Assembly (NCBI RefSeq): GCF_000819805.1
Contig: NZ_CDCE01000011.1
Span: forward strand, 66,890-101,730
Direction: 5' to 3'
From: Aeromonas diversa CDC 2478-85
Lineage (GTDB): Bacteria; Pseudomonadota; Gammaproteobacteria; Enterobacterales; Aeromonadaceae
DNA: 34,841 nt
In this document: positions 4,849 to 25,840 of the stretch, piece after piece
Layout of the letters: each line of letters starts with the position of its first letter
Numbering within the stretch: position 1 is the stretch's first letter
Notes under the pieces: generated by a model
The model's database searches: none
Told to the model about the DNA's origin: nothing
What the model saw: only the letters and a program-made list of their open reading frames with translations
Position numbers and translations under genes: made by a program

Positions 4849-4888
4849 TAAGGGGCTAGCCCCTGCCGCTGAAGAAGCCGCGCCCCCG

Positions 4889-20700: not shown

Positions 20701-20713
20701 CGACGCTCCGGGA

Positions 20714-20732
20714 GGCGCTCGGTCGAGCTCCT
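20714..20732 (+). repeat. Left outer 19-bp inverted repeat
   Basis: GGCGCTCGGTCGAGCTCCT starts 14 bp after the patD stop and is exactly complementary to 24214-24232. A related copy (AGGAGCTCGACTGAGCTCCT, itself a hairpin) lies at 24074-24093. Confidence 0.85.
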
Positions 20733-21106
20733 CACCTACGACGAGCATCACAATCCCTGCGGGATTGCCGCTACGCGGGGTTTCGCCCGCCCTGCGGGCT
20801 TTGGCGAGTGACTTTGGAAAGACCCAAAGTCACCAAAGGTCTTTTCCCCCGCCAACCCGACCGCTGCGCGGTTTCCCTCGGGTCGGTCACAAGGTCGGAC
20901 GGACCGCCGCAGATGGGGCATCCCTGCCCCGCTGCGGCTGCGCCATCATCCCTGATGGCGCTCCTGACCTTGCTTCCTCCCCTCGGCGGCTTGCAGGGGG
21001 TCAACAATACCGTGCCCGTCAGTAGCGAAGGCGGCTGGTGTCAGTTGTGGCGCTCAGAACGGCGCCCACTTCTGCAAGGGGGAAGAGTGGGTGTCCTAAT
21101 TTCCCA
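20714..21106 (+). repeat. Left structured repeat unit
   Basis: This is the non-coding stretch after patD, read on the plus strand in the order: 19-bp outer repeat; ACGACG; hairpin CAATCCC-TGC-GGGATTG (20751-20767); hairpin GTGACTTTGG / CCAAAGTCAC (20808-20817 / 20824-20833); hairpin GCGCCATCA-TCCC-TGATGGCGC (20940-20961); a CTCCCCTCGGCGGCTTGCAG block; CAATACCGTGCCC; CGCTCAGAACGG; and an end motif GGGTGTCCTAATTTCCCA. The same order reappears inverted at 23501-24232. Short open frames across it are not believed to be genes. Confidence 0.8.
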
Positions 21107-21144
21107 GGCACATCCAGCATGTTAGCCCGACAGGGGCCGAACAG

Positions 21145-22374
21145 TCAGCGTCTGTTGAGATCAGTTGTCGGGTAGAAATTTGCCCAGATCATCCAGTAAA
21201 TGCCGGCCTTCATGCTCTCGACACGCGGCAGCTTAGCGTCGGCCGTTACACCAAAGAAGTCGACATGTTCAATGGCGTGGCCGGTGTCATTGTAGAACGC
21301 CACCAGGCTCTGATAATCCTTGTCGTAACAGATCACGACGGCTCTGCCGCCAATGCTGGTATTGATGAGATTGCCGTGTTGACGCACAAAGTCTTCGGTA
21401 TAAGCCACATAATCATCCGCAACCGCTAATCCCCACACATGGGTCTTGTTGGCCAGACGATCATCCTTGTGCTTGATAGTCGGAAAGGTGGGCGAGTCTT
21501 TACTCGACTGATGTTTAATCGCCGTTGTGAAAATAAAATCCATGATGAAGTCATATACTGCCAGCACCGGATTTTTCCAAAAACTCACCCGCGTCTCTTT
21601 TGCCAGATAGTCATTGATGAACACTTCTCCGTTCGGATATGCCAGGGCAAACTTTTCAAATGGCATACGAAATGTGGGCCATTCACGCATCTTTGCATCA
21701 GAATTGGCAGAGTTAATGTCGCATTCCCGTTGCCCCCACAACTGCTGAATCGGCTCTCCCGAATTTTTGTCCCACATGACAAGGTTATTTTCCAGTTGAT
21801 TCATCGGAGCTAAATCGAGTGCAACCCCGTTGAGTTCAGGAGTATATGCCACGCCTAGGTTGGAGAGTCCGCAGTAGGTCATCACCACGTTCTCACCTCC
21901 GATCGGCCCCGCTCCTGCCACATGAGGGCGCAACAGATCTTTATCGGAGTGGGCGCGAGCCTCACCATTGACTTCAAGCACAATCACACTCTCATCGTCG
22001 GCATAATAGCGCCGTGCTGCATCCACAGACACAAACATGCCGTCTTTCATCCTAGCCCGCATCATGACATGCGGGTTGATGTAGCCACTGTAATAGAAAA
22101 GAATGATAGTTCCGCTGAGCAGAAGCAATACTGACAGAGGCATTACCTCCGGCTCGGCAATGTAAATGACCCACGACAAGAATAGTGCTATCAGCGTCAA
22201 CGCAGAATAACGGTGGCGATAATACCATACATGCATGGTCTTATTGCGCTCCGACTGGATGACCCACTGACTGATATCTGCCAACTCTTTAAACAGTAGA
22301 CCTGATGCGAACAGGGCAACCCCATTACACAGGAGAAACAAGATAAGGCCGATGCTTTCAACTATCGTATTCAT
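21145..22374 (-). CDS. Membrane-anchored DUF3179-like protein
   Basis: This 409-residue protein begins with three predicted membrane helices (about 7-27, 57-72 and 78-98), followed by a soluble domain resembling DUF3179: VIVLEVNGEARAHSDKDLLRPH, then NVVMTYCGLSNLGVAYTPELNG, and later GLAVADDYVAYTEDFV with GGRAVVICYD. Family members usually show a C-x-x-C after the MTY strand; here it is Cys168 followed by GLS, so the second Cys is missing. Function of the family is unknown. ATG at 22374 has AGG 8 nt upstream; one at 22398 has no ribosome site. Its GC content is far below the flanks, so it was probably acquired together with the LysR gene upstream. Confidence 0.75.
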   Translation of the reverse strand: MNTIVESIGLILFLLCNGVALFASGLLFKELADISQWVIQSERNKTMHVWYYRHRYSALTLIALFLSWVIYIAEPEVMPLSVLLLLSGTIILFYYSGYINPHVMMRARMKDGMFVSVDAARRYYADDESVIVLEVNGEARAHSDKDLLRPHVAGAGPIGGENVVMTYCGLSNLGVAYTPELNGVALDLAPMNQLENNLVMWDKNSGEPIQQLWGQRECDINSANSDAKMREWPTFRMPFEKFALAYPNGEVFINDYLAKETRVSFWKNPVLAVYDFIMDFIFTTAIKHQSSKDSPTFPTIKHKDDRLANKTHVWGLAVADDYVAYTEDFVRQHGNLINTSIGGRAVVICYDKDYQSLVAFYNDTGHAIEHVDFFGVTADAKLPRVESMKAGIYWMIWANFYPTTDLNRR

Positions 22375-22481
22375 GGTTTTTACCTGCTGCACAAACATGT
22401 GTTTAGCAGAGGATAAAAACAGCGAGGAAGAAGAAAAAGAGGGTTAGCAGCAATGCTCTGTTGCTGAAATTGGAACAATCA

Positions 22482-23366
22482 TCACGCCTCCAGCTGGGTC
22501 AACAGGACTGGAAGATGCTGACGGATGTCTTCAAGCAACAGTTTTACTTTGGCGGGAACGTAACGCCGAGAATGATAGACGCCATAAATCGTCTGCGCAA
22601 AGCGATACTTCCCATCGAATAACGCTTTTAACCTGCCCTGTTGAACTTCATGATTGGCAAATACCACGGGCAGACAACCAATGGCTTTGCCTTGTACGAC
22701 AATATTGGTTAACAGGCGTGGCGATTGGACGCTATAGCGGGGAGGACGTAGTAAAGGAAGCCTTGCATGTGGCCAGCATTGTTGCATCGACGTTTCCTGA
22801 ACTGCGATCGGCATATTGTTCAAAAGTGCCTCATCACTGAGTTGATGCCCATTTGTCCCCTCAACACCCATGTAAAGATCAAAATGCAGCTTCGCCAATG
22901 GCACGGCAATAAATGAAGAGTCGGGCTGTTCGCCCACCATCAGCATCAAATCAAAGCGTTTATCCATCAAATCCTGAGGGTTTTCAGGATATGAATGCAG
23001 TGTCAATGAAAGCGCCGGGTAACGCTCAAAAAAATCTGAAACTTGTTCGCTGCATAAATCGAAGAGATATTCGGCCCCATACAGGGTTAATGCCCCTGAA
23101 TACTCCCCCTGTGACTTGGTTATCTGACGATGCGTTTCTTCGACCTGCCGCAATATCTGTTGTGCTTGATGCAGAAATACCTCACCGACCTCGGTCAGGG
23201 TCAATGAGCGGGTAGTACGCTCAAGCAATCGCATCTCTAGTGAGTCCTCTAACGCCCGAATGCGCCGACTCACTGTAGATTTGGGCAGATCATTGACTTC
23301 TGCTGCGCGGGTAAAGCTTTTTAGCTCAACGACTTGAACGAAAAGAGCGAGGTCATCCAGATTCAT
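22482..23366 (-). CDS. LysR-family regulator inside the low-GC island
   Basis: This 294-residue LysR-type regulator carries the HTH at 1-60 (LDDLALFVQVVELKSFTRAAEVNDLPKSTVSRRIRALEDSL, then LLERTTRSLTLTEVG) of the CrgA/AaeR-like subgroup, with the effector domain from about residue 90. It is read in the same direction as the DUF3179-like gene, 107 bp upstream of it, rather than divergently. No strong Shine-Dalgarno precedes ATG at 23366. A sample line has 24 of 60 G+C, matching its neighbour and unlike the rest of the window. Regulation of the DUF3179-like gene is inferred from adjacency. Confidence 0.9.
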   Translation of the reverse strand: MNLDDLALFVQVVELKSFTRAAEVNDLPKSTVSRRIRALEDSLEMRLLERTTRSLTLTEVGEVFLHQAQQILRQVEETHRQITKSQGEYSGALTLYGAEYLFDLCSEQVSDFFERYPALSLTLHSYPENPQDLMDKRFDLMLMVGEQPDSSFIAVPLAKLHFDLYMGVEGTNGHQLSDEALLNNMPIAVQETSMQQCWPHARLPLLRPPRYSVQSPRLLTNIVVQGKAIGCLPVVFANHEVQQGRLKALFDGKYRFAQTIYGVYHSRRYVPAKVKLLLEDIRQHLPVLLTQLEA

Positions 23367-23954
23367 AATGGTGCATAGGTAAGCCGCAATAGATGCAGTA
23401 TTACTAGGTGCTTAGCGGCTGGCAAGCCTGGGTGCTTCCCCCAGTTGAGTGATGGTGGCGCATCCGAATCGACAGGCCCGCTTCTTTCCTCACCCCCACT
23501 GTAGTGAAATTGGAACACCCAAAATTTTGAGTGCCGCGTAGCGGCCAACAGAGCAGCAAACTACCAACCCAGTCGCAGTCTGGCACGGTATTGTCTACCC
23601 CCTCCAATCCGCCGAGGGGAGGAAACAAAGTCAGGAGCGCCATCAGGGATGATGGCGCAGCCAAATATTGGGACACCCACCGTTCTGAGCGCCGCGTAGC
23701 GAGCCCACTTAGCCGCCGTCGGGCACGGTATTGGCCCCCCTGCAAGTCGCCAAGGTGAGTTGAACGGGTCAGTAGCGCCGTCAGGGAGGACGGCGCAGCC
23801 GCAGGCGGCACAGGGATGTGCCGTGTGCGGCGGTACGGCCGACCCGATCGACGAGCCGAGGGCATCCGCGTAGCGGACGACTTGCCGGGGCTGGCCGCTC
23901 GATTGGTGACTTTTCTTTGGCCACGCAAAGAAAAGTCACTCGCCAAAGCCCAAA

Positions 23955-24232
23955 GGGCTGGCGAAAAACGTCGAGGGTAGAGCCCTCGCCCCTCACTCAC
24001 CCGATGCAATACGCCGCGCTGATTGCCCCCTCTCCCTATGCGGCAAAGCCGCATCGAGATCCCCGTCGTAGGCCAGGAGCTCGACTGAGCTCCTCCAGGT
24101 GGGCTGGCGAAAAACTTCGAGGGCAGAGCCCTCACTCACCCGGTGCAATGCGCCGCGCTGATTGCCCCCTCCCCCTGTGCGGCAAAGCCGCATCGAGATC
24201 CCCGTCGTAAGCCAGGAGCTCGACCGAGCGCC
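23955..24232. repeat. Direct tandem duplication inside the right unit
   Basis: A block of about 130-145 bp starting GGGCTGGCGAAAAAC occurs at 23955-24100 and again at 24101-24232. Both copies include GAGCCCTC, GCGCCGCGCTGATTGCCCCCT, the hairpin GCGGCAAAGCCGC and CGAGATCCCCGTCGTA. They differ by scattered substitutions and a few short indels, so the duplication is not brand new. Confidence 0.85.
24214..24232 (-). repeat. Right outer 19-bp inverted repeat
   Basis: This is the exact complement of 20714-20732, without mismatch. It ends 78 bp before the GNAT start codon. Confidence 0.85.
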
Positions 24233-24310
24233 GGCGGCCACACCCCGGTTGGGGATTGTCCCTCGCCTTATCCCAAGCCCCATAATGGCCGCTCATTGGA
24301 GGAGGCCTGC

Positions 24311-24955: not shown

Positions 24956-25840
24956 ATGTTGAGCAACCGACACCTTGGCCTTCACGCGTTGAGGTCATCA
25001 GCGAGCCGACCCGTGCGCTGGCTGCTGTGGTCCAGCCTTGTAATGCTCTGCTGCCTCGCCGGCGAGGCCCAGAGCAAGGCGCCGGCCAATCTCGGCACCC
25101 CGCAAGACTACGCCCTTATCTACAACGGCCCGATCTCCGATCCGGACAGCAACGAGGCGATCGCCGCCGTGGTCAAGCAGGCCGGGCTCCCCGTGGTCTA
25201 TCTCGACAACCTGGACGATCTCCCCGCCAGACTGGCGGGCGCCCGTCTGTTTATCATCGGTGGCACCGAAGATGACGTAGAGCCCCTGGTTCATCGGTTC
25301 ACCCCGGCCATCGCCGGGGCGCTCAAACGCTACCTGCGCCAGGGCGGGCGCTATCTGGGGATCTGCGGCGGTGCCTTTGTCGCCTCGCTGGGCTGGGCCG
25401 ACGAGGGCAACCATGTGAAGGCGCTCGGCCTGGTGCCTGCCGAGTCAGACGACTATGACGGGGACTTCTCCCCCAAGATCTATGACATTCGCTGGCTCGG
25501 GGAGGTGCGCCGCATGTACTACCAGGCCGGCCCCACCTTCGCCCTGAAGCCAAGCACCGAACCGGTGCGCGAGCTGGCCTACTTCGACGATGGCCGGATC
25601 GCCGCGTTGATGAGCGCCTACGGCAAGGGCAAGGTGGCCGTCTCCGGGCCCCATCCGGAAGCCCCCGACACCTGGAAAGCCAATGCGCAAGATGGCGATA
25701 CCATGGAGTCCAATATCCACCTAGCCGTGGATCTGGTGCAGGCGCTGCTCTCCGATCGCCCCGTCCTTGCTCCCGCCCAGACAGGCCCGGTCAGCCTGAG
25801 TGCGGGGGCGTCAAACCCGCCGCCCACATCGCTTGAATAG
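24956..25840 (+). CDS. Exported class-I glutamine-amidotransferase-like protein (BPL_N domain)
   Basis: This 294-residue protein has an N-terminal hydrophobic export signal (WLLWSSLVMLCCLAGEAQS) after a long basic lead, then a domain resembling the N-terminal region of biotin-protein ligases. The nucleophile elbow is YLGICGGAF (Cys137), and GPHPEAPDTW supplies the expected His-x-Glu pair, so the triad appears complete. Beta strands YALIYNG and ARLFIIGGTEDDVEP fit the fold. Substrate and role are unknown; an exported hydrolase or amidotransferase is likely. It follows the GNAT gene after 21 bp, suggesting co-transcription, and ends at a strong terminator. Confidence 0.82.
   Translation: MLSNRHLGLHALRSSASRPVRWLLWSSLVMLCCLAGEAQSKAPANLGTPQDYALIYNGPISDPDSNEAIAAVVKQAGLPVVYLDNLDDLPARLAGARLFIIGGTEDDVEPLVHRFTPAIAGALKRYLRQGGRYLGICGGAFVASLGWADEGNHVKALGLVPAESDDYDGDFSPKIYDIRWLGEVRRMYYQAGPTFALKPSTEPVRELAYFDDGRIAALMSAYGKGKVAVSGPHPEAPDTWKANAQDGDTMESNIHLAVDLVQALLSDRPVLAPAQTGPVSLSAGASNPPPTSLE

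What the first reader, a model, noticed from the sequence alone, without database searches (positions are those of the whole stretch)
20751..20961. Three hairpins in the repeat units keep pairing although their sequence changes
Hairpin 1 is CAATCCC-TGC-GGGATTG at 20751-20767, but in the right unit the same position holds an ATGCGGC / GCCGCAT stem (24038-24054). Hairpin 2 is a 10-bp stem at 20808-20833 but a 14-bp stem at 23906-23939, with the extra bases in both arms. Hairpin 3 is GCGCCATCA / TGATGGCGC (20940-20961 and 23637-23658) but GCGCCGTC / GACGGCGC at 23775-23796, where an A-T pair is replaced by G-C. Compensatory change points to selection on the folded form, as RNA or single-stranded DNA.
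Basis: seen in the sequence. Interest (0 to 1): 0.8.

Follow-up and report, generated by a model that had tools for sequence, protein, structure and literature searches.

The report
Folded-RNA brackets around phage-defence genes
The hairpins belong to a repeated element of Aeromonas whose core matches a known structured-RNA family (TwoAYGGAY), likely a binding site for the global regulator CsrA; copies sit in inverted pairs around blocks of low-GC genes, many of them predicted anti-phage defence systems, so the element would link gene islands to a global regulator.

Summary
All quoted hairpins are present. They are modules of one mosaic element, order A-B-C-D: hairpin 1 in A, hairpin 2 in B, hairpin 3 in C. 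Read on the opposite strand, C matches Rfam TwoAYGGAY, which shares a clan with CsrB. Across 40 Aeromonas copies C folds as a three-way junction: 95.1% of cells paired, 122 two-sided changes (shuffles 35; slid controls at most 13). Hairpin 3 is compensatory; hairpin 1 varies by allele swap, hairpin 2 by stem-length alleles. Loop GGA is kept in 40 of 40 (P2) and 34 of 40 (P3) copies, and 31 of 61 B-type outer hairpins in other genomes have a GGA-loop hairpin inside on the same strand. In the window's genome neighbouring units face inward 8 times, outward never. Cargo is low in GC; 22 of 36 tested loci with a C-bearing unit have a PADLOC hit, the window's own cargo (DUF3179 + LysR) none. C modules group by chromosomal site while cargo differs. 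CsrA binding of TwoAYGGAY was already predicted in print; I found no paper describing it as a border of defence cargo in the searches listed. Transcription, CsrA binding and cargo exchange are not shown. A DNA-level role of the bracket ends is the main rival.

The parts
20708..21110 (-). left bracket unit, modules A-B-C-D (RNA sense is the minus strand)
   Evidence: inverted copy at 23509-24240
20751..20767 (.). hairpin 1 in module A, CAATCCC allele
20808..20833 (-). hairpin 2 = outer hairpin of module B, 10-bp allele
20860..20872 (-). P4 hairpin of module C (ACCGC/GCGGT here; CTGGC/GCCAG, CCCGC/GCGGG in other copies)
   Evidence: 100% of cells paired, 3 of 5 pairs with two-sided changes
20885..20966 (-). 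Rfam RF01731 TwoAYGGAY match, 47.7 bits (gathering 43), model 43-129 of 168
20889..20973 (-). three-way junction closed by stem P1 (20966-20973 with 20889-20896)
   Evidence: 5 of 8 P1 pairs with two-sided changes
20906..20938 (-). P3 hairpin, loop A-GGGA-T; GGA loop in 34 of 40 copies
20940..20961 (-). hairpin 3 of the finding = P2, loop A-GGGA-T; GGA loop in 40 of 40 copies
21145..22398 (-). cargo gene, DUF3179 protein (PF11376)
   Evidence: no PADLOC hit
22482..23366 (-). cargo gene, LysR-type regulator
   Evidence: no PADLOC hit
23509..24240 (+). right bracket unit, inverted: D-C(part)-D-C-B-A-A (RNA sense is the plus strand)
23637..23658 (+). P2 hairpin of the partial C copy
23775..23796 (+). 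P2 hairpin of the full right C copy, A-T to G-C variant, loop AGGGAG
23806..23823 (+). P3 apex of the right C copy, CGGCACA-GGGA-TGTGCCG
23906..23939 (+). hairpin 2, 14-bp allele in module B
24038..24054 (.). hairpin 1, ATGCGGC allele in module A

Best explanation
The hairpins are modules of a repeated Aeromonas element whose core matches the TwoAYGGAY RNA family and is predicted to be transcribed, to fold as a three-way junction and to present two GGA loops that likely bind the regulator CsrA. Shown by calls: the family match, the covarying stems, the conserved loops, and the placing of units as inward-facing inverted pairs around low-GC cargo. Inferred: the RNA is made outward from each bracket unit, by read-through from the cargo operon or from its own start; one CsrA dimer clamps P2 and P3; the outer B hairpin protects the 3' part of the transcript; expression of the acquired cargo is thereby tied to, or feeds back on, the Csr system. 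Also inferred: the paired brackets, being alike at many places, serve as homology arms through which cargo is exchanged while the bracket stays at its site.
For: RF01731 match on the minus strand; 14 matches in the genome at E <= 0.001, 8 over the cut-off; CsrB of this genome carries the same clan label CL00106. Stem covariation, tree-aware test. P2 loop is ANGGA in 40 of 40, P3 in 34 of 40; the loop with its closing pairs resembles the SELEX consensus RUACARGGAUGU (PMC7652899, passages). A scan that used hairpin B alone: of 61 hairpins with enough sequence on both sides, 31 have an ANGGA-loop hairpin inside on the sense strand, against 7 inside antisense, 4 outside sense, 4 outside antisense. 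Free pair in 96 distinct B hairpins: standard or G-U on the sense strand in 91, on the other strand in 38. csrA present once, CsrB twice over cut-off. Inverted pairs: own-genome pattern scan, neighbours within 10 kb, +- 8, -+ 0, ++ 1, -- 3. Cargo lower in GC than flanks. C modules group by site. CsrA binding of TwoAYGGAY was predicted by motif match (PMC4333381, passages).
Against: No transcript is shown. G-U (17) and A-C (27) cells are not biased to the RNA strand in the Aeromonas alignment. Only one pair passes the all-pairs tree-aware test, and the number of further pair types is not above the shuffles. C lies 3' of the nearest low-GC cargo gene in sense in 15 of 15 evaluable cases at the cysS site (18 in all), but elsewhere 15 sense against 18 antisense (L058 counted once), so a 3'-UTR role is not general. 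Stems are 7-9 bp, whereas most SELEX hairpins had four or fewer contiguous pairs. Six of 40 copies, all in the window's genome, have lost GGA in P3. Outside Aeromonas the inside is only slightly poorer in GC (median -1.7 points, lower in 37 of 57).
Confidence: 0.5

Rival explanations
1. The units are DNA-level ends of a non-autonomous mobile or exchange element (MITE- or REPIN-like); a recombinase acting in trans would recognise the hairpins, perhaps as single strands, and the RNA fold is a by-product.
For: Inverted pairs; multi-copy mosaic; close inverted pairs without cargo in other genera: 12 neighbouring TwoAYGGAY pairs in 11 loci of four genomes (two genera) are minus-plus 10, plus-minus 1, minus-minus 1, ten of them 100-350 bp apart (some loci were fetched because one search already showed a pair); two Aeromonas genomes lack unit and low-GC cargo at the cysS site; the A. 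caviae record has a bracket with 558 bp inside; no sense preference outside the cysS site.
Against: No transposase or integrase domain among 36 distinct cargo proteins scanned with Pfam (not all cargo ORFs were scanned); no clean target-site duplication found; CsrB-clan RNA match; loop GGA is strand-specific and independent of stems.
Confidence: 0.34
2. The hairpins are RNA processing signals only: REP-like 3' ends or transcription terminators that mark the border between cargo and core genes.
For: Units lie between genes, at the cysS site always 3' of cargo genes; in L103 terminator-like sites exceed the shuffles (10 against 4.9 +/- 2.5) and one weak site lies in the unit at 4853-4876.
Against: In the window terminator-like sites are near the shuffled number (5 against 3.5 +/- 1.8) and do not coincide with hairpins 2 or 3; a terminator does not need fixed GGA loops.
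Confidence: 0.09
3. The pairing is kept by mutation, not selection: template switching between the arms corrects imperfect palindromes, and gene conversion spreads alleles.
For: Hairpins 1 and 2 vary as whole alleles, as expected of template switching.
Against: Two-sided changes also occur in stem P1, whose arms lie about 70 bases apart; loops stay fixed while stems change in other genera; the free pair of hairpin B is G-U on the sense strand in 54 of 96 distinct hairpins, which correction would remove.
Confidence: 0.07

Closest known systems
TwoAYGGAY RNA (Rfam RF01731; Weinberg et al. 2010, PMC2864571, passages read)
   Same: Module C matches above the gathering score on one strand; three relatives match over all 168 positions.
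   Different: The table entry read lists it as probable RNA, not cis-regulatory, of the human gut, gamma-Proteobacteria and Clostridiales; the passages read say nothing of inverted pairs, an outer B hairpin or cargo.
CsrB / RsmY-type CsrA-binding sRNAs (CsrB in Rfam clan CL00106)
   Same: Same Rfam clan as CsrB; hairpins with GGA in the loop; CsrA binding predicted for TwoAYGGAY (PMC4333381, passages).
   Different: About two GGA hairpins per C module instead of many; many dispersed copies at island borders; no promoter or transcript shown.
MITEs, REPINs and similar repeats (recalled; PMC10969869 and PMC2718517 seen in a search listing only)
   Same: Multi-copy, intergenic, inverted, palindromic.
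   Different: Here the arms often enclose kilobases of unrelated cargo, and bracket sequence follows the chromosomal site; no clean target duplication seen.
Core defence hotspots (P. aeruginosa, PMC10250203; seen in a search listing only)
   Same: Variable defence systems beside fixed core genes: cysS, thiH-like and uvrD sites here.
   Different: Here the edges of many islands carry the structured RNA repeat.

Membership tests
TwoAYGGAY RNA (RF01731) | score above the curated gathering score | tested here: met
   47.7 against 43 bits in the window; 8 of 14 own-genome matches over the cut-off; full-length matches in L103, L108, L121 of nine loci scanned
TwoAYGGAY RNA (RF01731) | two adjacent hairpins with AYGGAY-type loops | tested here: met
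   P2 and P3; the commonest loop in Aeromonas is AGGGAT, which is not strictly AYGGAY; ATGGAC/ATGGAT also occur
CsrA-binding RNA | GGA in hairpin loops with a SELEX-like context | tested here: met
   consensus from PMC7652899; stems are longer than in most SELEX ligands
CsrA-binding RNA | the RNA is made and binds CsrA | not testable with these tools
   no RNA-seq or binding data; csrA gene present
CsrB-type sRNA gene (RF00018) | match to the CsrB model | tested here: not met
   Rfam scan of the window gives only RF01731 over its cut-off; CsrB lies elsewhere in the genome
MITE / non-autonomous transposon | inverted repeats at the ends | tested here: met
MITE / non-autonomous transposon | target-site duplication at a precise insertion point | tested here: inconclusive
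   a roughly 25-bp palindromic stretch matches at both edges of the cysS insertion in some genomes, but it recurs elsewhere as well
Integron gene cassette | integrase and attC arrays | not tested
   no integrase or attC model was run on the whole genome

The most novel reading that the evidence does not exclude
Aeromonas keeps resident docking sites whose edges are CsrA-clan RNA brackets. Foreign genes, above all anti-phage systems, are swapped in and out between the brackets, and every captured island comes under, or feeds back on, the Csr global regulator through the bracket RNA. The same outer hairpin plus GGA-loop hairpins recurs across gamma-Proteobacteria and may reach Clostridia.
Probability: 0.28. 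Interest if true: 0.87.

Novelty: new variant of a known kind. Interest (0 to 1): 0.63.

Why it matters
In the papers seen, TwoAYGGAY is listed in 2010 without a function and in 2014/15 as a family of unknown function with predicted CsrA sites. If it borders exchangeable defence islands, two open questions become testable together: what the RNA is for, and how defence genes are exchanged at fixed chromosomal sites without an obvious recombinase. It would also give a sequence handle for finding new defence genes: look between the brackets.

Tried and rejected
Rfam gave no other family over its cut-off in the window, and ARAGORN no tRNA gene. Phage records hold no similar DNA at the sensitivity used; one A. 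caviae record matches. GNAT orthologues in G005, G028, G033, G021 and G019 first looked like empty sites, but none of the three neighbouring window genes tested matches there, so they were dropped. Only G008 was shown to share both flanks of the window's site; the aldehyde dehydrogenase gene itself was not searched in the other genomes, and the gene at 24956 has DNA matches of 68-69% in four further genomes that were not followed. A 3'-UTR-only reading fitted the cysS site (15 of 15) but failed elsewhere (15 against 18), so it was not made the main claim; the cysS cases are not independent, since cargo there faces the same way in the loci seen, with or without a unit. A general low-GC cargo pattern outside Aeromonas was weak. 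The promoter scans were at chance level.

Rows dropped before counts: of 52 C units, 9 split copies, one short copy, one duplicate and one mosaic copy (L045:7716) were left out of the 40-row alignment. One of the 9 split copies, in the window, is two C copies with D between, not an insert. Loci L101-L111 were chosen because they already showed +/- pairs, so the 28 of 36 is biased; the count used here is the pattern scan of the own genome. The genus DNA search scored only the best 18 or fewer candidates per genome, so its copy numbers are lower bounds. For PADLOC I gave mostly the larger ORFs: 60 cargo proteins (39 hit) against 10 window proteins outside the cargo (0 hit, a small control). Some hits are weak (L153, L159, L045:9935-10918) and AAA or restriction models are broad. 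In many of the 36 loci only one bracket edge lies in the stretch fetched. Of 27 cysS-site cargos tested 21 have a hit; 12 of the 27 have no C module on the cysS side, and 10 of these 12 hit, so defence cargo there does not depend on the bracket. I first read the P3 insert as adding two GGA hairpins; a recount found one with a stem of 4 or more in 7 of 8. After this check the odds of the best explanation were lowered slightly.

The claim that nothing was found in print rests in an open-access library only; no preprints, and most subscription papers are missing.

Full report
What is there. The three hairpins lie in one intergenic unit, 20708-21110, with modules in the order A-B-C-D; an inverted, partly tandem copy lies at 23509-24240. 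Between them are a DUF3179 gene and a LysR-type gene, 49% GC against 67% in the flanks. All quoted hairpins are at the stated places.

The RNA family. Module C, read on the minus strand in the left unit, matches Rfam TwoAYGGAY over the cut-off; the right unit is also found on the plus strand, 41.7 bits, just under it (C11:90659-90726). The own genome holds 14 matches at E <= 0.001, 8 of them over the cut-off. In three of nine related loci scanned the match runs over all 168 model positions. CsrB of the same genome, found twice over its cut-off, carries the same Rfam clan label. That TwoAYGGAY binds CsrA was predicted by motif match in PMC4333381 (passages), so that idea is not new.

Covariation. 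I aligned 40 distinct Aeromonas copies. The fold is a three-way junction: closing stem P1, P2 (hairpin 3 of the finding) and P3, followed by a small hairpin P4. Of 1,435 cells, 95.1% are paired (shuffled 86.5 +/- 0.4); 14 of 36 pairs have two-sided changes (1 of 500 shuffles as high); 122 cells have two-sided changes (shuffled 34.9 +/- 5.0; slid partners 2 to 13). The count of further pair types is not above the shuffles (30 against 29.5). With a null that respects the tree (100 simulated alignments), one column pair of 7,875 has E < 0.05, and it is a structure pair (47-58); counted over the 36 proposed pairs alone, 47-58, 103-117, 48-57 and 4-83 pass (my rescaling of the values). So covariation is real, but the genus-level alignment is shallow. 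Hairpin 1 varies by allele and hairpin 2 by stem-length allele; these two are not evidence of stepwise compensation.

Loops and strand. P2 loops are ANGGA in 40 of 40, P3 in 34 of 40; the six losses are all in the window's genome. Eight of 52 C copies have an insert in the tip of P3; in 7 of the 8 it brings a GGA-loop hairpin with a stem of at least 4 (GAACA-NGGA type), and it replaces the usual P3 tip. Of 61 such hairpins in the 80 listed loci with enough sequence on both sides, 31 have an ANGGA-loop hairpin inside on the sense strand, against 7 inside antisense, 4 outside sense and 4 outside antisense. The stems of these hairpins differ widely. One pair of hairpin B was left free in the search pattern: on the sense strand it is standard or G-U in 131 of 136 hairpins, on the other strand in 44 (counted from the table); among 96 distinct hairpins 91 against 38. 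These hairpins share ancestry, so this is one strong consensus and not many independent events. In the Aeromonas stems the same test shows no strand bias (17 G-U, 27 A-C); in the other genera's GGA hairpins and inner B stems the lean is slight (12 against 8, 15 against 7).

Brackets and cargo. An exact pattern scan of the own genome gives 26 oriented B hairpins; neighbours within 10 kb are inward-facing 8 times, outward-facing never, same-way 4 times (P = 0.0028 against one quarter). With few exceptions (for example L046 11030-12021) module order puts C and D inside. Of 28 stretches between neighbouring units, 27 have 34-52% GC with flanks of 58-67%; the other, in L046, is core-like (L101-L111 were chosen as pairs). 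In PADLOC, 22 of 36 loci with a C-bearing unit and at least one cargo protein tested have a hit, among them Lamassu, Gabija, Septu PtuA, Hachiman-like HamB, DarTG, DRT, a retron-type RT and restriction systems; the window's own cargo has none; ten window proteins outside the cargo have none. Three recurrent sites lie beside cysS, a thiH-like gene and uvrD. At the cysS site two genomes, G035 and G013, have neither unit nor low-GC cargo, and the A. caviae record has a bracket with 558 bp inside. Thirteen further genomes hold low-GC genes at the cysS site without a C module; nine of them have only a lone inverted B on the far side and four no module at all. So the bracket is not needed for cargo to be there.

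Brackets stay, cargo changes. In a tree of 41 C modules labelled cysS site, thiH site, uvrD site and other, the four labels need three changes, the least possible, against 21 in shuffles; support is high only for the uvrD site (100/100), weak for the other two. The window's site is shared with G008, with bracket units kept and a different cargo. This fits cargo exchange inside resident brackets, by homologous recombination or by an unknown recombinase; neither is shown.

Wider range. RF01731 is found in 24 of 369 class genomes, 22 of 272 genera, over the cut-off in 16 (strict filters; 0 of 14 control genomes). In eleven loci from four genomes (two genera) there are twelve neighbouring pairs, ten of them minus then plus, the same outward reading as in Aeromonas, one plus-minus and one minus-minus; ten are 100-350 bp apart and so have no cargo. 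In the two read in full, L196 and L212, an outer B-like hairpin stands at both ends.

Mechanism. I commit to an RNA-level function: a folded RNA, read outward from each bracket, that likely binds CsrA. The steps from transcription onward are inferred. The strongest rival is a DNA-level end of a mobile or exchange element. Both can be true at once.

Noticed in passing
L101, L131, L126 (sites beside cysS, thiH-like gene, uvrD): Three recurrent insertion sites across the Aeromonas species searched; at the cysS site 21 of 27 tested cargos have a PADLOC hit and the systems differ widely between species.
   Followed up: yes
window 21145-23366: The window's cargo is DUF3179 plus a LysR-type gene, without a PADLOC hit; such unhit cargo between brackets is a place to look for new functions.
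   Followed up: partly
L058, L060, L104, L105, L110, L111, L147, L157 (C copies with an insert in P3): The insert replaces the P3 tip and in 7 of 8 brings a GGA-loop hairpin of its own; a shorter GCC-ANGGAT-GGC one is seen by eye in most.
   Followed up: partly
L154 and L156, about 120-260 bases after cysS: The empty cysS site carries a C/T-rich palindrome and a second repeat with CGATTAGCGAAGCGTAATCG-like core; the former also matches at insertion edges.
   Followed up: partly
L060 (NZ_AP026896.1): A 4.94-Mb Aeromonas caviae record is filed as a plasmid in PLSDB with 18 annotated features; it looks like a chromosome.
   Followed up: no
L285 4712-4796: A C4 antisense RNA lies about 350 bases from a TwoAYGGAY match in a Pseudomonas genome, a hint of a prophage or satellite nearby.
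   Followed up: no
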